Shown piece by piece: positions 19,534-58,509 of a stretch of 64,000 nucleotides of DNA. The DNA is from Acidobacteriaceae bacterium (GTDB taxonomy: Bacteria > Acidobacteriota > Terriglobia > Terriglobales > Acidobacteriaceae). The notes beneath the pieces are model-generated. The model ran no database searches. It was not told the origin of the DNA and worked only from the letters and a program-made list of their open reading frames with translations. Location: positions 41,073 to 105,072 of the forward strand of contig PKVW01000024.1 of NCBI GenBank assembly GCA_003131585.1. The letters are read 5' to 3'. Within the stretch, counting starts at the first letter, position 1. Each line of letters opens with the position of its first letter. The position numbers and the translations under genes were made by a program.

Positions 19534-20175
19534 ATGAACGTCGCCCTCTATGCCCGCGTTTCCACCGACAAATGTGAGATCTGCGGCAAGAATCCCTCCT
19601 CGCACCACGAAGCCGGCGGACACCAGTTCCGCGGCCAGGATCCAGAAGTGCAGTTGCTGGAGCTGCGAGCCTGGTGCGTAGCCCAGAAGCACACCATCAT
19701 CCGCGAGTACGTGGACCGCGGCGTTTCCGGCACCAAAGCCTCCCGTCCCCAGCTCGATGAATTGATGGCGGATGCGACCAAGGGCTTGCGCGATATCCAG
19801 GCGGTCGCCGTCCTGCGCCTCGATCGTTTCGGTCGCAGCGTGCAGCACCTGCACAAGACCGTCGGCGACCTGCTCTCGGCCAAGGTGGATTTCGTTAGCG
19901 TCAAAGACAACTTCGATCTCACCACTCCCATGGGAAAGCTTTTGTTCGGCATCCTGGCGGTGTTCGCCGAGTTCGAGCGCAACGTCATCGCCGAGCGCAC
20001 CAAGGATGGCCTGAAGAAAGCCCGCACCGAGGGCCATATCCCGGGCCGCAAGATCGATCCGGTGAAAGGTCCTTCGAAGACGACGCTGTGGCGCCAGCAT
20101 GTCGGCGCCCGAGCCCTGGCGGCGGTCCTGGCCTGCGCCGTGATCATCGTGAGGCTCGGAAAGCTGCTCGGATGA
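19534..20175 (+). CDS. Serine recombinase (resolvase/invertase family) with Cys/His-rich insertion
   Basis: MNVALYARVSTDK...GQDPEVQLLELR; RLDRFGRS; FGILAVFAEFERNVIAERTKDGLKKAR. Confidence 0.88.
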   Translation: MNVALYARVSTDKCEICGKNPSSHHEAGGHQFRGQDPEVQLLELRAWCVAQKHTIIREYVDRGVSGTKASRPQLDELMADATKGLRDIQAVAVLRLDRFGRSVQHLHKTVGDLLSAKVDFVSVKDNFDLTTPMGKLLFGILAVFAEFERNVIAERTKDGLKKARTEGHIPGRKIDPVKGPSKTTLWRQHVGARALAAVLACAVIIVRLGKLLG

Positions 20176-33976: not shown

Positions 33977-34195
33977 ATGAATTCTCCCGACCCAGCCCTG
34001 ATCATGGGCATCGCCAAGAAACTCGACAAAGAGATTGCCGAGTTGCCGCTGAACTCGCAGGTGATGCTGGCGAACATCCTCTTGCAGTGCGTGCAGTACC
34101 GCACCACGCAGGAAGTGGAGAACGCGCAGAAAGAGCAGGAGCGCATGGCAGCGGAAAGTAAATTCAGTCCACACAAGATCGAGAGACCGTCATGA
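33977..34195 (+). CDS. Hypothetical small protein
   Basis: MNSPDPALIMGIAKKLDKEIAELPLNSQVMLANILLQCVQYRTTQEVENAQKEQE; ATGA overlap with the next gene. Confidence 0.5.
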   Translation: MNSPDPALIMGIAKKLDKEIAELPLNSQVMLANILLQCVQYRTTQEVENAQKEQERMAAESKFSPHKIERPS

Positions 34196-34755
34196 ACGAA
34201 ACCGCAGAACGCACCAAGACATCCGTCGAGCTGGCGCTGGAGAAAACCTCCGACCTTCCAGCCGCCGAGCAACCGTTGGCGAAAAACCTTGCCTTCCCGC
34301 ACGCTTTCGAGCGCAAGCGCGTCACTGAAGAAGAAGCCCTCGCCATCACCCGCGAAATCTTCGAGCCGGGGACCAACGCCCTGCGCGAAGGCACCACGTT
34401 CATTGCCATCGGAGACCGTTTGCTGGTCCGCCGAGTTCCCGAGGCCGAATACTCGAAGCATGGAATCTTCCTGCGCGAGACCGACCGCGACCAGCCGAAC
34501 GCCGGAGTCGTCCTCAGTTGCGGACAGGGGCGGATTACCGAAGAAGGCCGCTTGATTCCCTTGCGCATCCCCGTCGGGTGCGTCGTCCTGTTCGGCAAGT
34601 ATGCCGGCTCCGAAGCTCCGCTGGGCGCGATCAACGACGAGCCACAACTGATTCTGCACGAAGATGAAGTGTTGGGGATCGTCGCCACGAAAGAACAAGC
34701 GGCCATTATAGAGGCGAACGCGAAGCCGCCGGTTACCGCGGCGCAGGTGGGGTGA
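34192..34755 (+). CDS. GroES-like co-chaperonin with N-terminal extension
   Basis: IGDRLLVRRVPEAEYSKHGIFLRETDRDQPNAGVVLSCGQGRITEEGRLIPLRIPVGCVVLFGKYAGSEAPL...QLILHEDEVLGIV matches the GroES layout. Confidence 0.88.
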   Translation: MNETAERTKTSVELALEKTSDLPAAEQPLAKNLAFPHAFERKRVTEEEALAITREIFEPGTNALREGTTFIAIGDRLLVRRVPEAEYSKHGIFLRETDRDQPNAGVVLSCGQGRITEEGRLIPLRIPVGCVVLFGKYAGSEAPLGAINDEPQLILHEDEVLGIVATKEQAAIIEANAKPPVTAAQVG

Positions 34756-39227: not shown

Positions 39228-41942
39228 ATGTATCTCGCCGGCCTGCCTCACGAAATCACGCGCTGGAGTTCATTGGTTGAGCAGGATGACCCGACCAATC
39301 TTCCTCTCGGCGTTCTTGCCGTGGCGAAGAACTCGCGCTTTCATTTGACCAGCGTGCGCACCCGCGACGGCATCCAAAGTCAGTTCGGCTTCGTTCTGCC
39401 GGATGGCGGCGCCGTGACCGGATTGGTTAGCTCCAAATTGAGCGGGAACCCCGACGTGCAGATCCCGGTGGCCTTTAGTGGTTTGGGGCATCTGTATCAG
39501 GAACAACCCGTGGGCTCGGGCGTCCTGAAGCTGATCTCCAGCCCGCAGGTGCCGCCGGCCGCCGGGGCCAGTATGCAGGTCGCCTCCGCCTACCAGAAGG
39601 ATTATCTGGCCTTCGGCAACCTCGTGAACTCTTTGGCTGCACCCGCCGTCTTCAACCTCCAGACTGGTTTCCTTGATCCGCTCTCCATGAAGCCCGTGGG
39701 GATGGGTTGGCTCGCCGCCACTCCATACAACGTCGGGGAAGTAGTGACGCCGGCGGCGCCTGTGGGAGGCAACGGGCACACCTACATCTGCACGGTGGCG
39801 GGAATCAGTGGAGCGAACCAGCCGGTATTTCCCCTCACCGCCGGTGGCACGGTCGCAGATGGCGGAGTGACTTGGAAGGAGCAGACTGCGATCATGGCGC
39901 AGGCTCTGCCCGAGCCCGCGATCCCAACCGTGGCCCGCAACTCCGGCGCTGGAACATTCGCTGCCAACCGCGACGTGTACCTGATGGTCACGCTGGTGAA
40001 TGGAGTCGGCGAAACCGACGCGCAACTGATTCTCGCCTACAAATACACCAACACCACACTCAACGATCAGTTCACGGTCACCGCGCCCGTGCTTCCGGCC
40101 TGGGTGCAGGCGCTGGCCGCTCCCTATAAGCCCATCGGCTACAACGTTTACGAGGCGGACGTGACCACTGGCAATCCGGCGCCGGCGCTTTCGAGTTACG
40201 CCCTGGTGAACCTCGCGCCGGCAGGGCTCGCCGCCCCGACTAACGTCAACACCACGGGAACCGGGGCCGCGCCTCCGGTGTCGAATGGGGCGTTGGTTGC
40301 GCCCGCGGGAAATATTTGTGCCGGGCTGCGCTACATGGTCGTGCTGTTCTTGAACCGGAATGGCTACATCTCCGGCATGACGCAGGCCTCGGTCATCGTC
40401 TACAACTCGCCGACCAACGGCTATCAGCTCTATGTCGCGAATCTTCCCATCGGGCCTTCGAATACGCAGGCGCGGATCTGCGCCTTCACTCCCGCCGGGC
40501 AGTTGAGCCAGACCGCAGGCTACGGCATCTCGAATGCGGGGCCGTACTTCTGGATCGAGCCGAACATTCCGACCGCCGCCTTCAATCTCAACAACCCCAA
40601 CATCTTCAGTTTGATTCCCGGCGGCGTGACCATCGCGGACGTGGTGAACGGCGTCGAAGAGACTTCGACGCTGATCAACGACAACACCACCACCAGCGCC
40701 TTCTTCAACTTCGACGACACCTACCTGAAAGCCACGCTGAACGACGTGAGTGGCAATTTCCAGAATATCCAGGTGCCTCCGGTGTCCGACGTGTATTACT
40801 CACCCACCTTGGACCGCATGATCTACGCCCCGGATTCGTTGCCGAGCGGTTGGTATGTGTCGGAGCAGGGCGATCCCGAGACTGTCTACGGAGACAGTGG
40901 CTTGGTCCAGGTCGCGCAAAATAACGGTGAGCGTCGAGTCGCGGTGCGGGAGTATCAGGGCATCGTCTATCTGATGAAAGAACGCTCCGGCTATCAACTC
41001 GCTCCCTCGGCGACGGAACCGAACACCTGGGACGCAGCGCCGCAATGGAACGGCTCCGGCCCCTGCGGACCGCGGGCGGTCGATGTCTGCACCCGCTTCA
41101 TGGCCTATGTGCATCGTTCCGGGCTTTATATTTTTCAAGGCACGCTTCCCGTCCGTATCTCGAAAGAAGTTCCGATCACTTGGGGCCAGATCAACTGGGC
41201 GGCGGCGCAGACGATCTGGGTGATGATCGACGACGAGACCCAGGAGATTCGCATCGGCGTGCCGCTCGGCCAGAGCACGGTCCCCAACAAAGTGCTCAAG
41301 GTGAACTACGAGGAGTCGCCCGACTTCGCGCCGCCCATCCACTTCTCGCCCTACATCGGAAAAGAGATTGCGACCGGGGAATGCTACAAGTGGTCGGTCG
41401 ATGACATCGCCGCGAACCTGGCGATCCGCGCCTATCGTCCGCTGGTGAATCCGCCGGCGACAATGGACCCCGGCACCACGCAGTCGCAGATTCTTTACGC
41501 TTCCTCGAACCCGGACGGAGAGGTCAACGCGGTCATTCCTTACGTCTTCGACGACAACGGGGAAGGCATCGACTGGGTGGTCGAAAGCGTCTGCCCCAAC
41601 GACAGCCCGCAGGACAACCTGCTGAAGCCGAGCCAACTCGGAGGAGTGCAGGTCAATCTGAACGGCAACGGGCAACTGGGCTGCGAGGTTTTAGCGTTAC
41701 GAGGAAAAGACCCCAAGGATGGTGGGCCGCCGCTGGCCGGAACCGCCAAAGCGAATGTCGGGATGGTGAAGCGGCTGCCGAAGCCGATCATCGCCGGCGT
41801 GCCTTACTCCTGCGCGGCCCGGATGCAGAACGAGAAATTCCGCATCCGCATCACCAACGACAAGAAGCCGGGACAGTGGGGCGATCTGTTCTGGGCGTGC
41901 ATTTATGCGACGCCACTATCGAGCGCGAGGCCGGGCCGGTGA
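39228..41942 (+). CDS. Large tail protein, possible tail-tubular-B position
   Basis: 904 aa beta-rich ORF; position between capsid and internal virion genes. Confidence 0.5.
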   Translation: MYLAGLPHEITRWSSLVEQDDPTNLPLGVLAVAKNSRFHLTSVRTRDGIQSQFGFVLPDGGAVTGLVSSKLSGNPDVQIPVAFSGLGHLYQEQPVGSGVLKLISSPQVPPAAGASMQVASAYQKDYLAFGNLVNSLAAPAVFNLQTGFLDPLSMKPVGMGWLAATPYNVGEVVTPAAPVGGNGHTYICTVAGISGANQPVFPLTAGGTVADGGVTWKEQTAIMAQALPEPAIPTVARNSGAGTFAANRDVYLMVTLVNGVGETDAQLILAYKYTNTTLNDQFTVTAPVLPAWVQALAAPYKPIGYNVYEADVTTGNPAPALSSYALVNLAPAGLAAPTNVNTTGTGAAPPVSNGALVAPAGNICAGLRYMVVLFLNRNGYISGMTQASVIVYNSPTNGYQLYVANLPIGPSNTQARICAFTPAGQLSQTAGYGISNAGPYFWIEPNIPTAAFNLNNPNIFSLIPGGVTIADVVNGVEETSTLINDNTTTSAFFNFDDTYLKATLNDVSGNFQNIQVPPVSDVYYSPTLDRMIYAPDSLPSGWYVSEQGDPETVYGDSGLVQVAQNNGERRVAVREYQGIVYLMKERSGYQLAPSATEPNTWDAAPQWNGSGPCGPRAVDVCTRFMAYVHRSGLYIFQGTLPVRISKEVPITWGQINWAAAQTIWVMIDDETQEIRIGVPLGQSTVPNKVLKVNYEESPDFAPPIHFSPYIGKEIATGECYKWSVDDIAANLAIRAYRPLVNPPATMDPGTTQSQILYASSNPDGEVNAVIPYVFDDNGEGIDWVVESVCPNDSPQDNLLKPSQLGGVQVNLNGNGQLGCEVLALRGKDPKDGGPPLAGTAKANVGMVKRLPKPIIAGVPYSCAARMQNEKFRIRITNDKKPGQWGDLFWACIYATPLSSARPGR

Positions 41943-41964
41943 AGGCTGCTCTGACGATGACACG

Positions 41965-43215
41965 ATGAGCACCGCTTTGGCGCGTTACGCCGGGGGCTTC
42001 AAGAGTGGCGACCCGCAGCAGATGTTCCAAGGCTGGAATGCGTTAGTCGCGGAGATCAACGCATTGCAGGCGGCGGCCGGAACGAGTGATCTTGCGCCCG
42101 CAGGCAATCCCTCGACCGTCGCGCCTCCGCAGACGGCGCAGTTCACCGTGGTCGGCATCGACGGGAAGTTCGTCGTCTTCGTCACCAACCCGCAGAGCGT
42201 TGTGCCGGTGAGCGTCTCGATCTTGCGGGCCCGGATTCAAGCCGGATCGAACAGCACCCACACGCCGATTCTCCATCATCTCCAGTCGGCCACGACGCTC
42301 AACTTCGACCAGAGTTCCAACCTGAAAGATTACGGCATCAGTTCGCAACTGGTGTGGACCGATCAAGACCCGAACATCACCCGCTTCTTCCGGCTGCAAA
42401 GCTCCTATGACGGAGAGACCTGGAACGACTGGCAGTTTTTCTCGAGTCCCGAGCAGTGTGGCCCGGTGGGAGTCTGGTCCGGGCTGCTCAGAACGGCTGC
42501 ACTGACCCAGGTAAACGCCGCCTATACTCCGACCACGCAGCCACTCACAGCCTCGACCGGGGCGGGGGTGAATCAAGCCACCATCAACGTGGCCTCTTTC
42601 CAGGTGCAATACCCCAGCTCGATTTCGCCCGCCACTCTTGGGCTGGTGAACTATAACAGCGGCGCCATCACGCCGTTGCTCGATTCGACGGTTTACTACG
42701 TCTACTGCCTCGATGCGAGGTATGCGGGCGGCGCACAAACTTACTTCGCCACCACCGCCAACCCGCAAGTAACTGGAAACGAAGCCACAGTATTCCTAGG
42801 GACAATTACGACGCCGGCCTATGGCGGAGGCGGGACAGGCGGGGGCGGAGGCGGAAATGGGCCATGCTTCAGCGGGAACACTCGCGTCATCACGCGGGAC
42901 GGAATCAAAAAGATTTCCGACGTGATCGGCGGCCACGATGAAGTCCTGACCCAGCGCGGCTGGCGACAAGTGCGGCGATTGATTGAGCACGATTACGACG
43001 GCCCGATGCGGGACATGGGCAACGAGGAGCAAGTGACGCCACCGCATCGTTTCTGGGCGCAACGCGATTGGGTACAGGCGTTGCATATTTTTCTCACGAT
43101 CATCTCGCGCTTGGTCGGTTCCGTCTTCAACCTCGAAATTGACGGAGACGGCTCCGATGAGGAGCAGTGCTACACCCTGGCGAACGGCTGGATTGCGCAC
43201 AACTTGCGCAAATAA
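41965..43215 (+). CDS. Late virion-type protein with C-terminal Hint (intein/BIL-like) domain
   Basis: GGGGTGGGGGGNGP linker then CFSGNTRVITRDGIKKISDV...EEQVTPPHRFWAQRDWVQALHI...VFNLEIDG...CYTLANGWIAHN-LRK. Confidence 0.85.
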   Translation: MSTALARYAGGFKSGDPQQMFQGWNALVAEINALQAAAGTSDLAPAGNPSTVAPPQTAQFTVVGIDGKFVVFVTNPQSVVPVSVSILRARIQAGSNSTHTPILHHLQSATTLNFDQSSNLKDYGISSQLVWTDQDPNITRFFRLQSSYDGETWNDWQFFSSPEQCGPVGVWSGLLRTAALTQVNAAYTPTTQPLTASTGAGVNQATINVASFQVQYPSSISPATLGLVNYNSGAITPLLDSTVYYVYCLDARYAGGAQTYFATTANPQVTGNEATVFLGTITTPAYGGGGTGGGGGGNGPCFSGNTRVITRDGIKKISDVIGGHDEVLTQRGWRQVRRLIEHDYDGPMRDMGNEEQVTPPHRFWAQRDWVQALHIFLTIISRLVGSVFNLEIDGDGSDEEQCYTLANGWIAHNLRK

Positions 43216-46357: not shown

Positions 46358-49300
46358 ATGTCGTCCTACGCACTCAGCGAAGTCGAAGAAGCCCCGAGTT
46401 ACTCGGCGGACCAGGTAGAGGAAGCGCCCACGACGCAGCAATCTTCGGCTGCGCTCGATCAGGTGGCGCGTCCGCAGTCCCCTGCCCCGGTAGCGCCTGT
46501 GTCTCCGCGTCTTTCTCTCGGCCCGACTCCGCCCGCACCGCGTCCGGTCGCTGAAGGTTTAATCACCGAGCAAGAAGAACGCCGCGCAAGAATGCCGCTC
46601 ACGATCCAGCCCACGAGTGGAAGTCTAGAGAATCCGCATCCCGAACAAGTAGTCGCCACGCCGCGGCCGAATCGAACGTTGGCCGCGCCCGCGCAGCCGA
46701 ACGTCAACGTAGAGGAGCCGGGGGCCGTTCCCGTGCCTGTGGGTCCAAAATTCACAAACCCAGGCAAGGCTACGCCGCAAGAAGCCGCCTACGATCTTAG
46801 TTTCAGTGATCCCCTTCTGCGCCCTTATCGCGGTGCCGCTGAACTCTACCACGGAGTGAAGGACCTTCCGCCCGATCCCAGGAAACCTGGAACCTACCAG
46901 GAGCAAGCAGAACGAGGCACAACGGAGATTCTGAGAGGAGCGACGGATGTCGCAACCCCGGTGATGATCGCGGGGGCGGTCGCACAGCCGGAACTCGCCC
47001 TCCTCGCGGGTGCTGGCGCTGAGGCAGGAAGTTACGGCGCGGGAAAGCTGGCCGACGCGGTAAAAGCCTCACCCGACACCAAGGCACTGCTGCAAGAGGT
47101 CGGTGGCATCGCCGGAGGGTTTGCTGGCGGTTTTGCTCACGGCGGGTTGCGATCTGCGGCCAGTCCCGAAGACGCGCTCACCGATCTGCTGTGGAAGCGC
47201 GGCTACATCCGGGACGCCCAGCGCAACCCGGTCTCGTTCGCATCCGAAGCCGAGGCCCGGTATGCGGCACGAGAGATACTCCGCCAGAATCCACCAGGGA
47301 TAATCGACTCCCTACGTCAGAAAGGTGCTTACAAAAGAGCAGGCGCGGAACTGCCGCAGGTTTCTCCCGCAGAAGCCGCCAGACGAGCCTCCGCAACTGC
47401 CGAGTTCAACGCCCGCGCCCGAGCAGCAACCAGCCATGCCGACGATGTAGTGGCGGACATATCGAAGCTGACTCGCCCCCAACTCGCCGAATACATGGCG
47501 AAGTCGGCATCCCCGGACAAGCCTCTCGGCGATCCCGACGTAGCCAAAGCGATGTATGTAGCCGACCGCGAAGCCGCGCAGACACCGGCGCCCGCGCCGC
47601 CAGAAGCCCCCGTAGAAGCTCCCCGACCTTCACCCGCTCCAGCAGTCGCCCAGCCTCCCGGAGTCTCGCCTCAGGCCTTCACCTACGAGAATGCAAAAGC
47701 GGCCGTCGAAGACTTCTTAGACCAGCATGGGCGTGTGTCGCCGACCGTCCTCCAGCGCAACCTGAAACTGGGCTACGAGAATGCAAAGGCCGTTCTGAAT
47801 CGCATGGTTGGCGAGGGGGTGCTTCAGACCGATAGCAAGGGGATTGTCTTCACACGGCCCACAGAAACGCAAGCAGCAGCTATTCCTGAGTTCCGAGCGG
47901 ACGAAGTGGAAGAAGCCGCGCCTGCGGTAGAATCGAGGGGTGAAACTGCCCCAGCAGTATCGAACGCTCCCGCCGCGGCACTGGCCGCTGCCCGACCGAC
48001 AGGCCCAAGCGGAGGCACTGAATCAGTTGCTCGACCAAGCCCCGCCCCAACTCCTCAATCAGTTGCTCCAGCAAGTGCTCCGGAGGGTGAAAAAGAGTCT
48101 TCGTTCCAAAAAGGTGACTCCGTAACCCTTCCCGACGGCCGCTCGGGAGAAGTGAAGTACGTTTCTCCCCAAGGAAAATCTCCCGTGGTCACGGTCACGG
48201 TAGATGGCAAGACGGAAAGGTTTGTGGGTGCGAAGGAAGTTCAAGGGCTGAAGGCGGTAGAATCAGCCAATGCAGGCGCAGATAACGCTCCATCTGAACC
48301 GGAATCTGTCGCGGCGCAGACGAACCAGGCTCCGGCGTCTCCTGCTGCAAATGGTGAGCGCGTTACTGAAACAACTCCCGCCGAGAAGTACAAGTTCGGT
48401 TCCACCCAAGCCAATATCCCCGACGAATCTCCCGCCGCGAAAGCCCTCTCGACTGCCCGTGCGCGGATCTCGAAAGAAGACCTCGCCGGAGACGGCATCG
48501 ACGTAGGCGGCAACCACGTCACCGTCCGCTACGGGATCAAGGGTGAAGACGTTGAAGGAGTAAAGAAGTATCTCGCATCGCTCGCTCCGTTTGAAGCCTC
48601 TCTTGGACCAACGGAAACTTTCCCGCCCAGCGAACACTCCGACGGCGCCGCCGTGATCCACGCCCCCATCGTTGCCCCGGAGTTGCACCAGATCAACGCG
48701 GAACTGGAAAAGCACGGCGACTTCAGCGAGCCGAACTTCGACTACAAGCCGCACGCAACTGTCGCCTACGTGAAGCCGGAGAAAGCCAGCCGTTATGTGG
48801 GGATGAGTGTGACGTCCGGGCAGAAGTTCCCGGTGTCGGAAATTGCCATCACGGATAGACAAGGCAATCAGCAGGTGGTGAAGCTCGAAGGGAAAGGTGA
48901 GACGACCGCTGCGGCTCCGGCATTGCCACGCGACCTTGCAGGAGCAAAACCGCGTTACGGCTATCAGGACAAATTATTCCAGTTGCAGTTTGAAGACCCG
49001 CGCGATCTAGCCCTCTATACCGTGGCCCAGAGTACGCCGAACAAAGCGCACGGTCGCTACATGGAATGGCTGCGTGGACAATTCCCGAAACTCAGCGACG
49101 AAGACATTGTTCGTGGCGGTCGTTCCATCCGGGAACAAATCAAGCCTCTCGCTCGTGAAGGCAACCCAGCGGCCGGCCCACTCGTAATTCCGTCGCGGCA
49201 GGGGGAACCGGCATCGAAACCGGCCAGCGAGACACAAGCGCCACAAGCTGAGACGATTGCGGCCAAAGGTGAGACGAAGCCTGTCCGTGAATTTGCCGCA

Positions 49301-52300
49301 CATGAAGTCGAGGAAGCGCCAGCCGCAAAGAAGTCTCTCGCCCCCGAGCCAACGAAGCCCGAGCGCGAACGCCAGACCTTAGGGCTTCCGCCCGAACCGG
49401 GCCGCGTGGGAGAGATGAACATCCGCGACCTGAAAGTCGCGCCGAACAAATTCCAGTACAAACTCTCGACCGATGCCGAAGGCGTAGGCACGTTGCTCAA
49501 GGAAACGAAGGTCTGGAATCCCGATCTGGCCGGGATGGTCTCGGTGTGGCGCGATCTCTCCGACGGCAAGACCTACGTGGTGAATGGGCATCACCGCTAC
49601 GAACTGGCGAAGCGTTTGGGAGTGAAGACTCTGGTCGTCCGGCATATCGTTGCTCCGACCGCCAACGCCGCCCGCGCCATCGGAGCGGAACAAAACATTG
49701 CAGACGGGCGCGGCACGGCTCTCGACGCGGCGAAGTTCTTCCGCGATTCCGCCATTACCCCCGCTGACTTGAAAGAGAAGGGCATCTCGCTCGGCGAAGC
49801 CACGGTCGCCAAGGGAGTCGCACTGGCAAATCTCAGCGAACCCATCTTCAACCAGGTGGTGCAGGGTGATCTCACGCAAGGCCGCGCCGTCGTCATCGGA
49901 GAAGCAACCAGCGACCCGGCAGAACAAAAAGCGGTTCTCGATTTAGTCGAACGCAAAGAGCGTTCAGGAAAGAAAGTCTCCGACGACACACTCTCGGAAT
50001 TGATTCGCCTGGTGAAAGGCTCCGGGCAAACGACCGAGACCACCGCTGATCTTTTCGGAACCCAGCAGATCAACCGCTCGCTCGCCTTAGAGAAGGCGGA
50101 GATCTCCGCCCACATCAAACAGCAATTGGCGAAAGATAAGAAACTCTTCGGCTTCGTCTCGAAGGGCGACCGGGCCTCGGAACTGGAACGCGGCGGCAAC
50201 AAGATTGACGTGGAGAAATCGAAACAACTTTCAACTGGCGCAGCGCAAGCGGAAGAAGTCTATAATCGCCTGAGCGCGCGCGGAGGGCCAATTGCAAACA
50301 TCCTCGATGAATCCGCCCGGCAACTCGCCGACGGCGACAACGCCGCAAGCGTCAAATCCGAAGCCTACAGCCGCATCCGCGCCGAAGTATCCAAAACTCT
50401 CGGCGGCGGAGAAGGAAGCGGTACTGAACGACATGAAGGAACACCAGAGCCTCCAGAAGGCGTTACACACTCCCCCAAGCCCGACGATTCAGTAGACCTC
50501 TTCTCCGGTGCCCAGCCCGTCTTCCACGAACCGCTTCCACTGTCTGCGCGCACCGCCAAAGACATCAACTTTGACCTGATCGAGACCAGGGCTGGGATCG
50601 CGCCATATTTGCGCGTGAATGACGCTGCGGCAAAAGCCATCAGCCACTCGCTGGGACACGCTTTTCTCGGTGTAAACATCGACAAGGCCAGTGTCGGGCG
50701 GGCGTCCGCGGCGCTGCGAAGCGCTGCCTCATCGGCGGAGGCGAATAAGGTTGACGCAAAAGCAATCCGTCAGCTAAGAGGGCTGGCGGATGCGCTCGAT
50801 GAGGCACTCGACCGCGACCCGAACGCGGGCGTCAATCTGGTACGCCAAGGCCCTAGAGAAATTGGGACGGCTCACGAAGAACTCATCCACTCCGCGCAAC
50901 GCCGCGCCGGAAAAGGAAATATCGGGTTCGGCGTACCGTGGCAAGAGAGTCTAAAAATGCCCGCGTTTGCCGAACTCGGGGCCAATTCCATCGTTCCGCA
51001 GTTGCGCGCCGCTGGGCTTCCGGCCCCCGCGTCCACAATCGTGGCTGAGGGCATCGTGGACATCATGCGCGGTGAGGCAGCGCTTGAGGGCGTCAGCATC
51101 ACTGACGCCTTGGAAGCCGCCAAGGTATATTTTGAATCCGCGTTGGCACACTATGGCATCGAACACCTGAACGAACTACAGGCGATTCAGGATTATGCTA
51201 ACGACACCGAGAGAGAAACCAATGTCACCCATCACCCAGAAGTTCTGGCCATCCGGCGAGCCGGGGAAGCGGCTCTCGCCCGAACAATTGCTCGAGGGAC
51301 TGGAAAAGCATTGGGACGAACTGGAGCAACAGTACAAAGCGAAGCCCAGCTCGGAACTGAAGAACGAAATCGTGCACCTGGTGCAAAGGATAGCGGCCCA
51401 CCGGACGACACAGGGAAAGCCGATAAAGGACCTTCTTCCACGACTAAAGGCCCTGCCTACTCCACCCAGCCCATCGGCCTCACCGACGAAGAGTTAGAGG
51501 ACTGGTCGAAATCGAGAGGCTTCCGCGTCGAACCGGCGGGAGAACAACTCGACATCTTCGGCGGCAATCAATCCGTGATGCGCGTCTTCCGCGCCGGACG
51601 CGGCGGCAAAGAGCAAAAGGGCCTCGTCTATCAGAGTCAGCTCGATCAACTGAGTCAACCCAAGCCCGAACCGACAGAACCGTTCGCGCTCACCGGCGGC
51701 GAAACTCGCGAGCAGCAGCCCACGCTCTTTGGCGCGGGCGACCTCGGAGAGATCGTCGGCAATCCCAAAGCAGAGCGCGGCATTCAACTTCCTTCGCAGC
51801 AGCGTGACCGAGGGACTTCGCTATTTAAGCCGGAACACCGGAAGGAAGACCGCGAGTCTCTTCTCACCGGCGAATCCGGCACCCTCACCCCTTCCCTCTC
51901 CGCCGCCAAAGCCGTCTACGCGAAATTCATCAACCGCATCATCGACCGGAACCTCGACCTGGGCGACAAATACAAGCGAGTCGCCGAGCACGACCCCGCC
52001 ATCGCAACGATGCTGAAAGAGAAAGACAACGCCCCGCGCTACTTCCACGCCAAAGCGGAATCGAACGTGGAGCAGGTGGCCAAGGGACTGAATGAGTCGC
52101 AAGTCCGGCTCGCCGCGATGATGGCCGACTCCGACTCCCGAGAATTCTTAGAGGAGAATCACCCGGAGCAGTTCCAGGAAGCGCAGGACGATCCGGCTGT
52201 GATGGACGCCGTGAAGCAGTTCAAGCAGTACCAGGACGAGTTGGCGGCGATCCGCATCTCGCTCGGCTGGCACGTTCGCCGCGACCTCTCGACGCTTGAA

Positions 52301-54418
52301 GATGAAAACGGAGACTGGTCGGTGGTGGACCGCGACGGCAACGAAGTGGAGACCTTCGGCAAATCGCAAAAAGACGCACAGGAATACGCCGAAGAAGTGG
52401 GCGAAGTGCTCGACCATCTGAAGCGCACCTACCCCGAGCACAAGCGCGAACCGCTGATGGGACGCACCGACGAAGGCCCCTCGCTGGGCGCATCTTACGG
52501 TGGAATCAAAGCCCCCCGCCCCGACAAGAAACAGCGCATCGCCACCGCACAATACTTCTACGAGCACGGCGCGAAGGACTTCTCCGGCTACGTCAAGAGC
52601 TTCACCCAGGCCTACCACGCCGCGCTGAACCAGAAGATTTACGACTCGCTCACCGACGAAGCAACGAAGTGGAAGGAAGGCACCGCCCAGCCGCCGCAGA
52701 TCGAGTACCGGGGCCAGACCTACTACTCTCCCGACGTCGCCAAGTCGATGAAGCTGGCGAAGCCGGAGAACCGCCCCAAGAAGATTCTCGAATACCGCGC
52801 TTACGACCCCGCCAAAGACGACAAGGTGATGATCCGGGATTTCGAGAACGGCTGGAGCACGACGACCACCGGCAGGCCGGGGATCAGCGCCCTGGACCGC
52901 TACCTCGCGCCAAAAGACGTGGTGGACGCTTTAGAGCACTACGACATGACGCGGGGAGCGGAAGAGGGCAACTCCATCCGGCGCTTCTTCCAGGATCAGA
53001 TCGTGGGCTTGTTTGGCCCCAACATCCACGTCTTGAACATCATGCGGCGATTGGCTACGACGGTGGGAGCCGGAGCCTGGGACCCGCGCGTATGGCCCTA
53101 CTACCAGAGGCTTTTCTTCTCGAAGGAACTGCGGGAGCGCATGGCCGAAGGGCTGGCCGACGACGCCATCGACACGCTCTCGAAGTGGGGCACCTACACC
53201 AACACCAAAGATATTGGCAGCCTGCACGACTACGTTCTCGGCAATATGGACCCGAGGAATTGGGCGCGCTGGACCATCGGCAAGTTCTCGAAAGGCGTTT
53301 TGTTCGATCCGAAGTTCCTCAGAGGCTTCGGCGGGCTCGACCAAAAAGCCCGTGTGCTGGCCTACGACTTCCTGCATGCCCGCGCCGGGATGAACGAAGA
53401 GGAAGCCGCCAAGAACGTCGAGGACGGCTTCGGCAACTACAACAAAGCCAACTGGACCGAGCGCATGAAACGTTGGGGGCGGGCACTTCTCTTCCCCGGC
53501 TGGGACTTCTCCAGCTTGAAATGGTTCCTGCGTCACCCCATCAAGACGGCGCTCCCTGCGCTGGTTGTTATGGGCGCAAACCTCGCGCTCAACAAAGCGG
53601 GCAAGAACCGCGACTCCGACAAATACGACTACAGCTATCTGCACTACGGCGACCGCAAGTACCGCACGGGGTTAATCACCGAGCCGATGGCGCTGCATCT
53701 GGTCGAACCTATCCTTGCGGCCGGACGAGCCGCACTCGAAGGCGGCGACACGCGAGACATTGCAGGTGCGGCAGGACAAGGCATGCTGCGCGGCGGCGGC
53801 GGACTGGCGGGCGATCTGCGTCCGGATATCGGCGTTGCTACTGAACTACTCTCAAACCGTCAGTACTTAGGCGGAGAAAAAGAAATCTGGCGACCGGAAG
53901 ATGCGAACATTCCCGGTACGGTGCTGCCTACGCGTAAGCTAGAAAAGATGCTGGCCTTCTCCGTGGTCAAAGCCCTGCCCGCCGTGAGCCGCTTCCTTGA
54001 TACGAGTTTCGAGAGCCTAGACCGGGCCACTGTCGCGGGCAGCGTCATCGGCGTCACGAATTACAAATCCGGCGCGGAAGAAAGATTAAAAGCGAACGAA
54101 GCGAAGGCGATGGGATATTCACAGACCTTGAGTACGCTGGCGGAGCGCGAACCGGACGCGGCTGAGAGATTCGTCCAGGAACCGGCGAAGGCTCCGTATC
54201 TGATGTTCAACAAGGACCTTGCGGAGCTCGGGAAAGACCTCAAGAGTATCGACACCGAAATGGAGCGGGTGAAGATCGCCGAGATCCCGTATGCTGACCG
54301 GAAGCGGGCGCTCGAAGACCTCAGAACCTCACGCTCGCAACTCTTGCAATCGGCGGACGCGCTCGATGAGGAACTCACGACCGCGAAGCTGCAGATGAAG
54401 AAGGCGGCGGGTCAGTGA
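46358..54418 (+). CDS. Giant polyvalent ejection-type protein (2686 aa)
   Basis: Gly-rich hydrophobic segment near N-terminus; FtsK-gamma-like wHTH, SH3-like, 2H-like and ParB-like segments; T7 gp16 position. Confidence 0.8.
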   Translation: MSSYALSEVEEAPSYSADQVEEAPTTQQSSAALDQVARPQSPAPVAPVSPRLSLGPTPPAPRPVAEGLITEQEERRARMPLTIQPTSGSLENPHPEQVVATPRPNRTLAAPAQPNVNVEEPGAVPVPVGPKFTNPGKATPQEAAYDLSFSDPLLRPYRGAAELYHGVKDLPPDPRKPGTYQEQAERGTTEILRGATDVATPVMIAGAVAQPELALLAGAGAEAGSYGAGKLADAVKASPDTKALLQEVGGIAGGFAGGFAHGGLRSAASPEDALTDLLWKRGYIRDAQRNPVSFASEAEARYAAREILRQNPPGIIDSLRQKGAYKRAGAELPQVSPAEAARRASATAEFNARARAATSHADDVVADISKLTRPQLAEYMAKSASPDKPLGDPDVAKAMYVADREAAQTPAPAPPEAPVEAPRPSPAPAVAQPPGVSPQAFTYENAKAAVEDFLDQHGRVSPTVLQRNLKLGYENAKAVLNRMVGEGVLQTDSKGIVFTRPTETQAAAIPEFRADEVEEAAPAVESRGETAPAVSNAPAAALAAARPTGPSGGTESVARPSPAPTPQSVAPASAPEGEKESSFQKGDSVTLPDGRSGEVKYVSPQGKSPVVTVTVDGKTERFVGAKEVQGLKAVESANAGADNAPSEPESVAAQTNQAPASPAANGERVTETTPAEKYKFGSTQANIPDESPAAKALSTARARISKEDLAGDGIDVGGNHVTVRYGIKGEDVEGVKKYLASLAPFEASLGPTETFPPSEHSDGAAVIHAPIVAPELHQINAELEKHGDFSEPNFDYKPHATVAYVKPEKASRYVGMSVTSGQKFPVSEIAITDRQGNQQVVKLEGKGETTAAAPALPRDLAGAKPRYGYQDKLFQLQFEDPRDLALYTVAQSTPNKAHGRYMEWLRGQFPKLSDEDIVRGGRSIREQIKPLAREGNPAAGPLVIPSRQGEPASKPASETQAPQAETIAAKGETKPVREFAAHEVEEAPAAKKSLAPEPTKPERERQTLGLPPEPGRVGEMNIRDLKVAPNKFQYKLSTDAEGVGTLLKETKVWNPDLAGMVSVWRDLSDGKTYVVNGHHRYELAKRLGVKTLVVRHIVAPTANAARAIGAEQNIADGRGTALDAAKFFRDSAITPADLKEKGISLGEATVAKGVALANLSEPIFNQVVQGDLTQGRAVVIGEATSDPAEQKAVLDLVERKERSGKKVSDDTLSELIRLVKGSGQTTETTADLFGTQQINRSLALEKAEISAHIKQQLAKDKKLFGFVSKGDRASELERGGNKIDVEKSKQLSTGAAQAEEVYNRLSARGGPIANILDESARQLADGDNAASVKSEAYSRIRAEVSKTLGGGEGSGTERHEGTPEPPEGVTHSPKPDDSVDLFSGAQPVFHEPLPLSARTAKDINFDLIETRAGIAPYLRVNDAAAKAISHSLGHAFLGVNIDKASVGRASAALRSAASSAEANKVDAKAIRQLRGLADALDEALDRDPNAGVNLVRQGPREIGTAHEELIHSAQRRAGKGNIGFGVPWQESLKMPAFAELGANSIVPQLRAAGLPAPASTIVAEGIVDIMRGEAALEGVSITDALEAAKVYFESALAHYGIEHLNELQAIQDYANDTERETNVTHHPEVLAIRRAGEAALARTIARGTGKALGRTGATVQSEAQLGTEERNRAPGAKDSGPPDDTGKADKGPSSTTKGPAYSTQPIGLTDEELEDWSKSRGFRVEPAGEQLDIFGGNQSVMRVFRAGRGGKEQKGLVYQSQLDQLSQPKPEPTEPFALTGGETREQQPTLFGAGDLGEIVGNPKAERGIQLPSQQRDRGTSLFKPEHRKEDRESLLTGESGTLTPSLSAAKAVYAKFINRIIDRNLDLGDKYKRVAEHDPAIATMLKEKDNAPRYFHAKAESNVEQVAKGLNESQVRLAAMMADSDSREFLEENHPEQFQEAQDDPAVMDAVKQFKQYQDELAAIRISLGWHVRRDLSTLEDENGDWSVVDRDGNEVETFGKSQKDAQEYAEEVGEVLDHLKRTYPEHKREPLMGRTDEGPSLGASYGGIKAPRPDKKQRIATAQYFYEHGAKDFSGYVKSFTQAYHAALNQKIYDSLTDEATKWKEGTAQPPQIEYRGQTYYSPDVAKSMKLAKPENRPKKILEYRAYDPAKDDKVMIRDFENGWSTTTTGRPGISALDRYLAPKDVVDALEHYDMTRGAEEGNSIRRFFQDQIVGLFGPNIHVLNIMRRLATTVGAGAWDPRVWPYYQRLFFSKELRERMAEGLADDAIDTLSKWGTYTNTKDIGSLHDYVLGNMDPRNWARWTIGKFSKGVLFDPKFLRGFGGLDQKARVLAYDFLHARAGMNEEEAAKNVEDGFGNYNKANWTERMKRWGRALLFPGWDFSSLKWFLRHPIKTALPALVVMGANLALNKAGKNRDSDKYDYSYLHYGDRKYRTGLITEPMALHLVEPILAAGRAALEGGDTRDIAGAAGQGMLRGGGGLAGDLRPDIGVATELLSNRQYLGGEKEIWRPEDANIPGTVLPTRKLEKMLAFSVVKALPAVSRFLDTSFESLDRATVAGSVIGVTNYKSGAEERLKANEAKAMGYSQTLSTLAEREPDAAERFVQEPAKAPYLMFNKDLAELGKDLKSIDTEMERVKIAEIPYADRKRALEDLRTSRSQLLQSADALDEELTTAKLQMKKAAGQ
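51222..51497 (+). CDS. Candidate overprinted ORF (91 aa) in +1 frame of the giant gene
   Basis: MSPITQKFWPSGEPGKRLSPEQLLEGLEKHWDELEQQYKAKPSSELKNEIVHLVQRIAAHRTTQGKPIKDLLPRLKAL; main frame is linker-like here. Confidence 0.4.
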   Translation: MSPITQKFWPSGEPGKRLSPEQLLEGLEKHWDELEQQYKAKPSSELKNEIVHLVQRIAAHRTTQGKPIKDLLPRLKALPTPPSPSASPTKS

Positions 54419-54780
54419 GCGCTTGGCGCGGGGCAGGGATAGGCGGCAGTAAATGCAGCACGGATACCCCGGACCTTCGATTCGTGCAGAATGGTCGGAT
54501 GCTCATCAAAGTACCTGATGACGACCTGTTTCAGCTCTCCCGCGCGAAAGCCGTCAGGCAGGCAAAAGGCTTGCCCATCGAGCGCATCTGCTACCCCTAC
54601 CACATAGCCGAGACTGGTGCTTGCATCGACGGCTCCTTGAGCGCGGGCGGCTACCGAATCGTTTGAAGATTGACTATCGTATGCGGTGAGATGGATTTTG
54701 AACTGGTAGCAATCGTCGTTGATGAAGGATTGCCCAAAGAGCGGAAGCGTGAGTAACGAGACCAGCAACCAGCGTTTCAT
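54412..54780 (-). CDS. Rap1a/Tai-like exported protein (T6SS amidase immunity family-like)
   Basis: Signal MKRWLLVSLLTLPLFGQ; C...LGYVVGVADALDGQAFCLPDGFRAGELKQVVIRYFDEHPTILHESKVRGIRAAFTAAYPC; GGGGGAG upstream. Confidence 0.75.
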   Translation of the reverse strand: MKRWLLVSLLTLPLFGQSFINDDCYQFKIHLTAYDSQSSNDSVAARAQGAVDASTSLGYVVGVADALDGQAFCLPDGFRAGELKQVVIRYFDEHPTILHESKVRGIRAAFTAAYPCPAPSAH

Positions 54781-54870
54781 GGAACTCCCCCTTTTCCCGC
54801 CCAACAGGATGCTCTGCCTGACTACTTTTACGCAAGTGGACGGTGGACCAGGAGCAAAAACACCCTAGCT

Positions 54871-56250
54871 ATGAGCGCTTTTCCTCAACTCGATCCCTTC
54901 GCGCAAGCCCACGAAGACGGAAAGAAGGCCGTGGCCACCTTTCTGCCGAGCCTTGTCACGCCGAAGATGCCCCCGCAAGCACCGCCGAAAGCCTTGCCCC
55001 ACAGCGATCTTCGCGATGCCGTCCGAGCCATGAGTTTAGCGAATCACGTCGAGCAGATGTCGAGCCGCGTCGCCAACGGATTGCCGCCCAGCCCGCCCCA
55101 GCCCACGCCGGAAGAAACGTTCGGCAACCAGCTCGACGCCGTGCATACCCGCGCCATCGCCAGCGCCATTGCCGCGCATCCAGAAACCCAGAGAGCGCGC
55201 TTGATTTCCGAAGCCCACGACTCGGCCTCGAAGTGGATCATGTCGCACAACGGCAAGGTGATCGTTCACGGCAAGGTGGAGCTTGCCCACGATCCCAAAT
55301 CGGCGCAGACTCTAGCAGCCAAGATCGTCAACGGCACAGTGGAAGACCATGACGCAAGAGAAGAAGCGAAAGCAGAGTCGCTCGATAATCCTCGGGGCAC
55401 CCAAGGGGATGATCGTCAATCCGTTGGCAATGCCGGGGGGAACCGTACAGAAAGTCGGCAGCCGATACCTCCTGCTGCCACGGCACAAGAGCGTTCACCA
55501 ACCGCTGTTCGTCCCGGCGCTTCAGTCGGAACGTCTGATCCGCAAAGCGGCCGCGTCGTCACCCACTCCTCCGCTGATCTGGCACGGGCTCAAGCGACAG
55601 CTACCGCCCAAGCCCCGAAATTCCGCCGTCTGCTCGAAGCCGGAACCACAGGGGTAAAGGGGGCGAGAGTCGCCGGAGTCCGTTCGAAGAAAGAAGCCAG
55701 CCGCGCGCGGCAAAAAGCGCAGACCGAAGGCAAAGCCCCGAACACCCAGACCGATCTCCTCGCCGGGCGCATCGCCGTCGATTCCCCGGAAGCGAAAGAT
55801 CAAGTCGTTCAAAACCTGAAAGACCAGGCTCCGGTGATTGACGAATCCGACCGTTTCCAAAACGGCGATCCCGACTACGGATTCCGCTCTCACACCCTGC
55901 AGACACAAGTCTCTCCCGAGACCAGCGCGGAAGTGCAGGTCATTCCCCAAGACATCGACGACGTGGACGACACGACGCACCAGACCTATGAGCAGGGCCG
56001 CGAAGCGGAAGCGACGGGAAACGACGAGACCGCAGAGCAAGCGATGGCCGACAACAAATCGGCGCACGACGATGCGATGGACAAGTTCAACGCGCGCAAC
56101 GAATCCCGCAACCAACCGGGCAAGCAGGGCCGTTCCCAGAAGATCAAAGACATTCTCGCCGCCGCCGGAGTGAAGGGCGCGGGTGAGCCGATCAAACTCG
56201 GAGGACACTTCTTCCTCCCCATTCAGGACGATGCCGAAGAAGCCAGCTAA
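54871..56250 (+). CDS. Late protein with RelA/SpoT-like nucleotidyltransferase domain
   Basis: RSKKEASRARQKAQTEG...DLLAGRIAVDSPEAKDQVVQNL...GDPDYGFRSHTLQTQV...AEVQVIPQDI...THQTYEQGRE. Confidence 0.7.
   Translation: MSAFPQLDPFAQAHEDGKKAVATFLPSLVTPKMPPQAPPKALPHSDLRDAVRAMSLANHVEQMSSRVANGLPPSPPQPTPEETFGNQLDAVHTRAIASAIAAHPETQRARLISEAHDSASKWIMSHNGKVIVHGKVELAHDPKSAQTLAAKIVNGTVEDHDAREEAKAESLDNPRGTQGDDRQSVGNAGGNRTESRQPIPPAATAQERSPTAVRPGASVGTSDPQSGRVVTHSSADLARAQATATAQAPKFRRLLEAGTTGVKGARVAGVRSKKEASRARQKAQTEGKAPNTQTDLLAGRIAVDSPEAKDQVVQNLKDQAPVIDESDRFQNGDPDYGFRSHTLQTQVSPETSAEVQVIPQDIDDVDDTTHQTYEQGREAEATGNDETAEQAMADNKSAHDDAMDKFNARNESRNQPGKQGRSQKIKDILAAAGVKGAGEPIKLGGHFFLPIQDDAEEAS
55349..55657 (+). CDS. 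Candidate overprinted ORF (102 aa) in +1 frame
   Basis: MTQEKKRKQSRSIILGAPKGMIVNPLAMPGGTVQKVGSRYLLLPRHKSVHQPLFVPAL; main frame is low-complexity linker. Confidence 0.35.
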   Translation: MTQEKKRKQSRSIILGAPKGMIVNPLAMPGGTVQKVGSRYLLLPRHKSVHQPLFVPALQSERLIRKAAASSPTPPLIWHGLKRQLPPKPRNSAVCSKPEPQG

Positions 56251-56785
56251 GAAGTCTCAGCCGAAGAAGGCAGGCCCCAAGAAAAAGACTGGCCCCAAGG
56301 GTCCGCGCAAACAGCCGACCTGGACGCCGAAGGAACTGGCCTTCGTTGAGGCGTTCAAAGGCAATCAAAGCAAAGCCGCCAAAATCGCCTACCCGAAATC
56401 GAACAACCCTTCCGTGCTGGGCTCGGAGTTGATGGCGAAGCCGCACATCCGCGAAGCCTGCGAGAAGAAGCTGGCCGCGATGATCGACGAATCGGGCAAA
56501 CGCCTGGCGCGGGTGGTGGATATTGGGAGAAACGAAATCATCATGTTGAACGCCGACATCGCCCGAAAGGGCGACAGCGACTCAGCTCGCGTGGCGGCCT
56601 TGCGGGAACTGAAGGATATTTTCGGCCTCAGCGCCAAAAATGATCGAGACACAGACATGTTCGCCGGTTGGAGCGAAGAGGAACTTCGGGAGTTCGCCGA
56701 CACGGGATTTGTTCCGAAGTCAGTTGCAGCCCGAGTTTTATCGGGCCACGGCGCGCCTCCGGCTCAGCCAGATTCAGCGAAGTAA
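56231..56785 (+). CDS. Terminase small subunit with basic N-terminal tail
   Basis: MPKKPAKKSQPKKAGPKKKTGPKGPRKQPTWTPKELAFVEAFKGNQSKAAKIAYPKSNNPSVLGSELMAKPHIREACEKKL. Confidence 0.8.
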   Translation: MPKKPAKKSQPKKAGPKKKTGPKGPRKQPTWTPKELAFVEAFKGNQSKAAKIAYPKSNNPSVLGSELMAKPHIREACEKKLAAMIDESGKRLARVVDIGRNEIIMLNADIARKGDSDSARVAALRELKDIFGLSAKNDRDTDMFAGWSEEELREFADTGFVPKSVAARVLSGHGAPPAQPDSAK

Positions 56786-57440
56786 GCCTTCGCAAGAACT
56801 GGCGGAACGCGCTAGGGAAGCCACGCGTGACGCCTACGCTTGGGTCACTCAATACACCAAGACTTACAACGAGCAGTGGGTCAAACAAGGCAGATCGAGT
56901 CCTTACGAATCCTTCCCCTCGGCGGCGGAGCGCCCCGATTTTCCGGCCATCTTCGAACTGCTGGCTTCGAGCGAGCCGGTTTTATGGTTCGAGAAATCCC
57001 GCACTATGATGGAGTCCTGGGCCATCGTCGCCTATCTCACGATCAATGCGATGACCGTCGCCATGCGCGGCGTGGTGCTGCAGTGCCAGAAGGAAGAGAA
57101 AGCCCGTCAGCTCATCAAGTACGTCAAATGTTTGTATTCGCAGCAGCCGCAGTGGCTGCAGGGTGCTTACCCGTTATCGAAGCCGCTGCACTCGCAATCC
57201 GATCTCTCTTGCCAGTGGGCGGCTGGAGGCTATGTCGTCGGCATTCCCGGCGGAGCCGACCAGATGCGCTCCTATCACCCCTGGGCAGTGATGAGCGACG
57301 AGAGTTCGTTCCAGCCGGATGCGGGCGAGTGCTACAACGAATATCTTGCGGCGGGCCCCGAGAAAATCATTTTCAACTCCTCGGCCGGTCCCGGCTGGTT
57401 TGCCGACGCGCGTCACGACATCGTGGTGAATTGTGAGTAG
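56640..57440 (+). CDS. Terminase large subunit, ATPase half (true start probably further downstream)
   Basis: LWFEKSRTMMESWAIVAYL deviant Walker A; WAVMSDESSF Walker B; IIFNSSAGPGWF motif III. Confidence 0.7.
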   Translation: MIETQTCSPVGAKRNFGSSPTRDLFRSQLQPEFYRATARLRLSQIQRSKPSQELAERAREATRDAYAWVTQYTKTYNEQWVKQGRSSPYESFPSAAERPDFPAIFELLASSEPVLWFEKSRTMMESWAIVAYLTINAMTVAMRGVVLQCQKEEKARQLIKYVKCLYSQQPQWLQGAYPLSKPLHSQSDLSCQWAAGGYVVGIPGGADQMRSYHPWAVMSDESSFQPDAGECYNEYLAAGPEKIIFNSSAGPGWFADARHDIVVNCE

Positions 57441-58509
57441 CAAAGTCGCCGCAGCTCTGGAGCGGACCAAGAAGATGCCGCCGCAGACGCAGGTGGAGAT
57501 TGTGCGCGGGATTACGTTGCGCCGCACCAAGGGCGGCATCCCGGTGATTCGTCATCACTACTCCGCCGATCCCGCGCGCGATCCGGACATTAACCCGGAG
57601 TGGAAGCTGCAGGAGCGGCGCAAATATACCTCGCAGGCGTCATGGGATCGCGAGCAGGAAATTATAGACAACGCGGGCGGCGGCGAGCTGGTGTTGGCCG
57701 ACACCCTGGTCACGCACTGGAAGAAAATCGTCATCGAAGACCCGCGCTGGCAGCCCGATCCGAAGTGGAGAGTGGAAGCAGGGTTTGACCACGGACGCGC
57801 GAATCCCACGTCGATGGAACGGGTCTACTGCGACTACGAAGGCAACTTGTTTTTCTGCGGCGAATATTACCAGCCGGGGCGGGAAATCTGGGAGCACGCC
57901 ATTACGCTGAAACAGATGGCCGACATCCGCCGCATCTCGGTTTGTTATGCCGACCCATCGATCTTCCCGTTGAACGCCCAAGCCAACGTACCCACGCGAA
58001 AAGACGAGCGGGCGAAATCGCTGAACGAGATTTACGTAGAGAACGGCATCGAGATTTTTTCTCCCTTTCACGGCGACCACTCCGACATCAGCTTCGGAGA
58101 ACGTGTGTTGATGCACTGGCGCGACCTCGAACACCGGCAGCCGACATTGAAAATCGTGTGTCGCAACTTCTCCGAGAGTCCGCAGCCCGGCCTGCACAAC
58201 TGGGATTGCCCGAACCTGCTGTGGGAGATGATGCGGATGCGGCGGGTGAAGCTGACGGCACAGCAACTCCTGAGCCGGAACACCTCCGAAGCCATTGTCC
58301 AGAAAGACAACCACGCACTCGATGCCGGTAAGTATCTAGTCATGTCGCACCCCGAGCCAGCCTACAAGAGCGCCAAAGAGACGGCCGCCGAAGCCGTCGC
58401 GCCACTGGTGGAACAAGGCGATTTGACCTCGGCCAACATTCGCTACGCCCAGACGCTTTCCCGTCTCGACCAATCAAAACGCAAGCCGATCAGGATCGGC
58501 CGCCACTAA
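57433..58509 (+). CDS. Terminase large subunit, nuclease half
   Basis: WRVEAGFDHGRANPTSMERVYCDYEGNLFFCGEYY...DNHALDAGKYLVMS RNase-H-like nuclease layout; GTG start overlaps previous stop. Confidence 0.75.
   Translation: MSSKVAAALERTKKMPPQTQVEIVRGITLRRTKGGIPVIRHHYSADPARDPDINPEWKLQERRKYTSQASWDREQEIIDNAGGGELVLADTLVTHWKKIVIEDPRWQPDPKWRVEAGFDHGRANPTSMERVYCDYEGNLFFCGEYYQPGREIWEHAITLKQMADIRRISVCYADPSIFPLNAQANVPTRKDERAKSLNEIYVENGIEIFSPFHGDHSDISFGERVLMHWRDLEHRQPTLKIVCRNFSESPQPGLHNWDCPNLLWEMMRMRRVKLTAQQLLSRNTSEAIVQKDNHALDAGKYLVMSHPEPAYKSAKETAAEAVAPLVEQGDLTSANIRYAQTLSRLDQSKRKPIRIGRH

What the first reader, a model, noticed from the sequence alone, without database searches (positions are those of the whole stretch)
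55672..56030. RelA/SpoT-like nucleotidyltransferase in a phage late/ejection-type protein
GVRSKKEASRARQK, DLLAGRI, GDPDYGFRSHTL, AEVQV and THQTYEQG appear in the order of the (p)ppGpp synthetase fold (RxKxxxSxxxK, DxxxxR, GYRSxH, ExQ, H/Y region). Placed beside internal virion genes, it may act as an injected alarmone or tRNA-modifying effector, or as toxin/defence or counter-defence.
Basis: partly seen in the sequence, partly recalled or inferred. Interest (0 to 1): 0.75.

Follow-up and report, generated by a model that had tools for sequence, protein, structure and literature searches.

The report
Phage RelA-like enzyme beside terminase genes
A prophage gene next to the DNA-packaging genes really does encode a distant, apparently active relative of the bacterial alarm-signal enzymes RelA/SpoT, probably an effector used against the host cell; phages are already known to carry such enzymes, so this is a new variant rather than a new kind.

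Summary
ORF 54871-56250 (+, 459 aa) carries a RelA/SpoT-type nucleotidyltransferase domain at aa ~245-381 (55603-56013). Pfam RelA_SpoT matches below its cut-off (17.8 vs 27 bits). In 119 genomes of the phylum this was the only match at E<=0.01 below the cut-off. Profile-profile comparison with genuine Rel/SAS proteins gives probability 88-96%; reversed or shuffled controls stay below 1%. The AlphaFold model's best PDB matches are all RelP, RelQ or Rel synthetases. Nine motif residues, including the Mg-binding Asp and the catalytic Glu, are invariant in three phage members; NTase dN/dS is 0.14. The guanine-contacting His and the Arg of EIQIR are not conserved, so GTP is a doubtful acceptor; an adenosine nucleotide or tRNA-CCA is possible. 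The gene overlaps the small-terminase gene by 20 bp and follows a 2686-aa polyvalent-type protein, so late expression and virion delivery are plausible but unproven. RelA/SpoT domains in phage polyvalent and MuF proteins are published (PMC5512222, PMC5576092, PMC12226406). New here: stand-alone architecture, an unclassified N-terminal domain, no MuF domain, an altered acceptor site. No immunity gene was recognised.

The parts
54871..56250 (+). 459-aa ORF: N-terminal conserved domain + variable linker + RelA/SpoT-like NTase + helical/C-terminal tail
   Evidence: ORF list; homologues L006 100%, L007 76% overall, L012 partial
54871..55374 (+). N-terminal domain aa 1-168, 88% identical to L007, unclassified, probably helical
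   Evidence: dN/dS 0.095; AlphaFold pLDDT 45.6, not interpretable
55375..55548 (+). variable low-complexity linker
   Evidence: alignment A1; pN 0.55
55603..56013 (+). RelA/SpoT-like nucleotidyltransferase domain (aa 245-381)
   Evidence: Pfam PF04607; hhalign with controls; AlphaFold + Foldseek
55681..55716 (+). Basic ATP-side motif R271xxKExxRAxxK282 (Rel RxKxxxSxxxK region)
   Evidence: invariant R271, K274, E275, R278, A279, K282 in three members; mapped to Rel by MAFFT alignment
55753..55770 (+). D295-LLAG-R300: Mg-binding Asp and Arg
55876..55896 (+). YGFRSHT (Rel NGY[QR]SLH); His position replaced by T/A/D
55930..55938 (+). E354-V-Q356: catalytic Glu strand (Rel E[IV]QIR), Arg absent
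55978..55989 (+). H370xxY373 (Rel AHWxYK region)
56014..56250 (+). C-terminal helices and conserved tail GEPIKLGGHFFLP
   Evidence: model helices and hairpin
56231..56785 (+). Small terminase subunit; start overlaps end of the NTase gene by 20 bp (also in L007)
   Evidence: Pfam Terminase_2 4.8e-7, phrog_51 3.4e-8; overlap
56640..57440 (+). Probable N-terminal (ATPase) half of a split large terminase
   Evidence: sequence reading (deviant Walker motifs), same position in L007 and L012; no convincing family match of its own
57433..58509 (+). C-terminal half of large terminase
   Evidence: phrog_5653 0.0026
46358..54418 (+). 2686-aa polyvalent-type giant protein (2H phosphoesterase, ParB-like and phrog_21-like regions)

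Best explanation
The gene makes a late phage protein whose C-terminal part is a working member of the RelA/SpoT pyrophosphokinase fold. It most likely transfers pyrophosphate from ATP to the 3'-OH of an adenosine-type acceptor: ADP/ATP giving (p)ppApp, or the CCA end of tRNA. GTP is less likely. The protein is probably packaged with, or delivered beside, the 2686-aa polyvalent protein through its conserved N-terminal domain, and acts as an effector that slows or reprograms the newly infected host. Shown: the fold, the conserved Mg/ATP-side residues, purifying selection, and the location in the packaging/late block. Inferred: activity, acceptor, packaging in the virion and biological role.
For: Pfam sub-cutoff hits in every member with a clean specificity control. 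hhalign 88-96% against <1% in controls. The A3 profile itself pulls out genuine RelA/SpoT proteins (L014, L017) and a ddrB-ParB polyvalent protein (L015) in other genomes. AlphaFold topology; the first 45 PDB matches are RSH, SAS or toxSAS enzymes; BFVD matches include phage RelA/SpoT and DdrB/ART-PolyVal proteins. Nine motif residues invariant in three members, chance about 0.002 given 72/137 invariant columns. NTase dN/dS 0.14. 20-bp overlap with the small-terminase gene in two phages. Missing SxH histidine and EIQIR arginine; PMC12226406 reports that adenosine-specific enzymes differ from RSH at these syn3/syn4 sites. PMC5512222 reports RelA/SpoT domains in virion-type polyvalent proteins.
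Against: Only three distinct members, two of them close, and a modest model (pLDDT 70.8, pTM 0.58). The ATP-side K and S of the canonical motif are not invariant. The A3 profile finds no Rel chain in PDB by sequence. No immunity or antitoxin gene was recognised beside it, though a self-harmful enzyme would often need one. No direct evidence for presence in the virion or for activity. The syn3/syn4 pattern does not match Apk2 (GxN/YH) either, so the acceptor is a guess.
Confidence: 0.5

Rival explanations
1. It is an ordinary (p)ppGpp synthetase: the phage raises ppGpp to shift host transcription and translation during infection or lysogeny.
For: Fold nearest to RelP/RelQ/Rel; FRS, ExQ and H..Y motifs retained; alarmone synthesis is proposed for polyvalent RelA/SpoT domains in PMC5512222.
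Against: Guanine-side His of SxH is T/A/D and the Arg after ExQI is V/I in all members.
Confidence: 0.2
2. It works while the prophage is resident, as a toxin/defence factor against other phages (toxSAS- or CapRel-like), not as an injected effector.
For: The contig carries host-type genes on its left side, so the phage is probably integrated; CapRel structures are among the Foldseek matches, ranks 44-45.
Against: Gene overlaps the small-terminase start, which points to late expression; no antitoxin-like partner recognised; no antitoxin-like domain in Pfam.
Confidence: 0.15
3. The domain is a catalytically dead structural module of a virion or packaging protein that keeps only the fold.
For: Linked to the terminase; ATP-side K and S and the acceptor-side His vary.
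Against: Mg-binding Asp, catalytic Glu, Gln, Arg, His and Tyr all invariant, dN/dS 0.14.
Confidence: 0.12
4. The motif resemblance is chance or convergent.
For: All single-protein scores are below the Pfam cut-off.
Against: Specificity control, profile-profile comparison with controls, fold and hits in all members.
Confidence: 0.03

Closest known systems
RelA/SpoT domains in phage polyvalent proteins (Iyer et al. 2017, PMC5512222); BFVD A0A6J5KIV2, A0A6J5S4E3; L015/L028 here
   Same: Same domain superfamily, phage late/virion context, neighbours with 2H and ParB-like domains
   Different: Here the NTase sits in a separate 459-aa protein with its own conserved N-terminal domain instead of inside the giant protein
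Apk2 MuF polymorphic toxins (PMC12226406)
   Same: Prophage late-module protein with a C-terminal RelA-like domain after a phage-specific N-terminus; altered syn3/syn4 motifs
   Different: No MuF domain; no IapK/Aph1 genes recognised; syn3 is S-H-[TAD], not GxN; syn4 second residue V/I rather than the YH pair
toxSAS tRNA pyrophosphokinases FaRel2, PhRel2, CapRel (PMC11559606)
   Same: RelA/SpoT-family NTase fold
   Different: No antitoxin partner or fused antitoxin recognised; low sequence similarity
Small alarmone synthetases RelP/RelQ
   Same: Best structural matches (6ewz, 6ex0, 6fgj)
   Different: About 15% identity; guanine-contact His not conserved; multidomain

Membership tests
RelA/SpoT-like NTase superfamily (PF04607) | Passes the family's curated score | tested here: not met
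   17.8, 13.6 and 22.8 bits vs 27 in the three members
RelA/SpoT-like NTase superfamily (PF04607) | Shared fold and profile homology | tested here: met
   hhalign 88-96% with controls; Foldseek prob 1.00 to RelP/Rel
RelA/SpoT-like NTase superfamily (PF04607) | Mg-binding Asp, catalytic Glu, core Arg/Gln conserved | tested here: met
   D295, R300, E354, Q356 invariant
(p)ppGpp synthetase (RSH/SAS) | Guanine-side SxH and EIQIR motifs | tested here: not met
   His is T/A/D, Arg is V/I
(p)ppGpp synthetase (RSH/SAS) | Makes pppGpp | not testable with these tools
   needs a biochemical assay
Apk2 MuF toxin | MuF N-terminal domain | tested here: not met
   No PF04233 match in the protein; genome search found only one E 0.4 match on another contig
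Apk2 MuF toxin | Adjacent IapK and Aph1 (HD hydrolase) immunity genes | tested here: inconclusive
   HD_4 (PF13328) matches lie on other contigs only; IapK-type proteins were not searched with a model
Polyvalent protein | Several effector domains in one late phage protein | tested here: inconclusive
   The neighbouring giant shows 2H and ParB-like regions; the NTase protein itself shows one recognised domain
toxSAS TA system | Cognate antitoxin next to or fused with the toxin | tested here: inconclusive
   Upstream Rap1a-type gene is on the opposite strand and absent at that place in L007, where the preceding ORF ends 8 bp before; no antitoxin domain in the NTase protein in Pfam

The most novel reading that the evidence does not exclude
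A previously undescribed family of terminase-linked phage effectors in which a RelA/SpoT-fold enzyme with a rebuilt acceptor site is delivered with the virion and pyrophosphorylates a non-guanosine acceptor (adenine nucleotide, tRNA or an unknown molecule).
Probability: 0.3. Interest if true: 0.65.

Novelty: new variant of a known kind. Interest (0 to 1): 0.42.

Why it matters
Alarmone and tRNA pyrophosphokinases are used on both sides of phage-host conflict. A compact stand-alone version tied to the terminase block, in a poorly studied phage lineage, would give a tractable protein (~140-aa catalytic domain) for asking whether phages inject such enzymes and what they modify.

Tried and rejected
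tblastn against GenBank phages and plasmids found no relatives. Scans of viral contigs with N-terminal, NTase, L015 and motif queries returned only L006/L007/L012 and chance matches. Genome scans gave no true relatives; four DPDYG motif matches lay in spurious frames. The test of a polymorphic-toxin architecture (same N-terminus with other C-termini) failed for lack of homologues. The N-terminal AlphaFold model was too poor to search. NCBIfam gave nothing. Direct PDB sequence searches gave no Rel chain. The overlapping ORF 55349-55657 was dropped because only its first residues are shared with L007. A role of the Rap1a gene as the cognate immunity gene was considered and rejected: opposite strand, absent at the same place in L007, and Rap1a proteins are periplasmic (own knowledge).

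Full report
Observation. The quoted motifs lie in one ORF, 54871-56250 (+), 459 aa. Pfam RelA_SpoT (PF04607) covers aa 274-367 at E 0.0041, 17.8 bits, below the 27-bit cut-off. A whole-genome search with the same model gives the place E 9.6e-4, next to four clear RelA/SpoT proteins on other contigs. Over 119 genomes of the phylum every other match at E<=0.01 was above the cut-off, so a sub-cutoff match of this strength is not background. The same model hits all three related virus records at the matching place (9.7e-8, 1.5e-5, 2.5e-4).

Relatives. IMG/VR holds an identical copy (L006), a 76% identical full-length homologue (L007) and a 54% identical domain (L012). No member was found in GenBank phages, plasmids or the genome collection. 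A profile of the three picks out, in 396 genomes of the phylum, two ordinary RelA/SpoT-containing proteins (L014, L017) and a 2412-aa polyvalent protein with a ddrB-ParB domain (L015/L028), plus weak partial matches. The L015 domain aligns to the three phage proteins at 93% and to Rel/SAS proteins at 83-84% by hhalign, far above shuffled controls.

Fold. hhalign of the three-sequence profile against 36 Rel/SAS domains gives 87.6% (E 3.5e-6), and against the diverged SAS subset 96.0% (E 4.2e-9). The reversed profile gives 0.14% and the best of 30 column shuffles 0.59%. AlphaFold on aa 227-459 (three sequences) gives pLDDT 70.8, pTM 0.58, and the order helices-strand-helix-strand-helix-three strands-helix expected of RelA/SpoT. 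Foldseek against PDB returns RelP, Rel, RelQ, SpoT, Tas1 and CapRel before any other fold; TM-scores are moderate (about 0.34-0.47 by query) because the query contains extra helices and the model is not sharp. In the viral library the top matches are a DdrB-like protein, proteins named RelA/SpoT, and an ART-PolyVal-like protein from uncultured phages.

Catalytic residues. Aligned to Rel/SAS, the core residues R271, D295, R300, G337, R339, E354, Q356, H370 and Y373 are all invariant in the three members. With 72 of 137 columns invariant, nine out of nine has a chance of about 0.002; the nine were picked after seeing the alignment to Rel, so this is a rough figure. Four other canonical positions are not conserved: the K and S of RxKxxxS, the His of SxH (T/A/D) and the Arg of EIQIR (I/V). 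dN/dS between the window and L007 is 0.14 in the NTase and 0.095 in the N-terminal domain, while the linker is freely changing. This looks like an active enzyme with a changed acceptor side. PMC12226406 describes other changes at the same syn3/syn4 sites (GxN, YH) in (p)ppApp-making Apk2, but swapping motifs did not switch specificity there, so the acceptor cannot be predicted firmly here.

Context. Upstream is a 2686-aa protein with 2H phosphoesterase, ParB-like and phrog_21-like regions. Downstream are the small terminase, whose start overlaps the NTase gene by 20 bp here and in L007, and a large terminase in two ORFs. L007 keeps NTase-TerS-TerL although its upstream giant is replaced by other proteins except a shared 2H region and the first residues. 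The block therefore travels with packaging genes. The contig carries host-type genes to the left (TruB-like, MacB-like; my reading of sequences) and a glucosaminidase-type endolysin to the right, so I read it as a prophage. The genome's only resolvase-family gene lies at about window 19540-20037. No host name is available.

Mechanism. Best supported: a late, possibly virion-delivered effector using ATP to pyrophosphorylate an adenosine nucleotide or tRNA. The enzyme fold is near certain; activity is likely; acceptor and delivery are inference. (p)ppGpp synthesis, a resident anti-phage toxin, and a dead structural module are the rivals.

Known or new. Iyer et al. (PMC5512222) describe RelA/SpoT domains in polyvalent and MuF phage proteins and propose that phages deploying them trigger an alarmone-like response. 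Jamet et al. (PMC5576092) report RelA-like MuF toxins and hypothesise delivery with phage DNA. Apk2 has been shown to make (p)ppApp (PMC12226406). The idea is thus known. The present protein differs by its stand-alone form, its unclassified N-terminus, no MuF domain, no recognised immunity genes and its acceptor-side motifs. I file it as a new variant of a known kind.

Noticed in passing
window 54412-54804 (-): Rap1a-type immunity protein gene (Pfam PF18602, E 1.5e-16) on the opposite strand between the giant protein and the NTase gene; absent at that place in L007. A second, weaker Rap1a match lies on another contig of the genome.
   Followed up: partly
window 56640-57440 and 57433-58509; L007 7089-7922/7912-9000; L012 1143-1964/1939-3048: Large terminase split into two overlapping ORFs, always in the +1 frame relation, in all three phages: either two coupled genes or a programmed frameshift.
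   Followed up: partly
window 34192-34755 (+): GroES/Cpn10-like protein (PF00166, E 7.8e-17) within the phage structural gene block, with an N-terminal extension of about 70 aa.
   Followed up: no
window 41905-43215 (+): Weak Hint/Vint-like match (PF14623, E 0.0046) in a structural-region protein.
   Followed up: no
L028 218-7453: 2412-aa polyvalent protein with ddrB-ParB and an embedded RelA-like domain that Pfam does not detect; the same contig encodes a probable tyrosine recombinase (my reading of the sequence).
   Followed up: partly
window ~19540-20037 (+): The only resolvase-family (PF00239) gene of the genome lies in or beside the phage region.
   Followed up: no
L014, L017: 840-848-aa open frames joining a RelA/SpoT domain to repeat-like regions and a C-terminal domain of possible SLOG type, perhaps a conflict system.
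   Followed up: no
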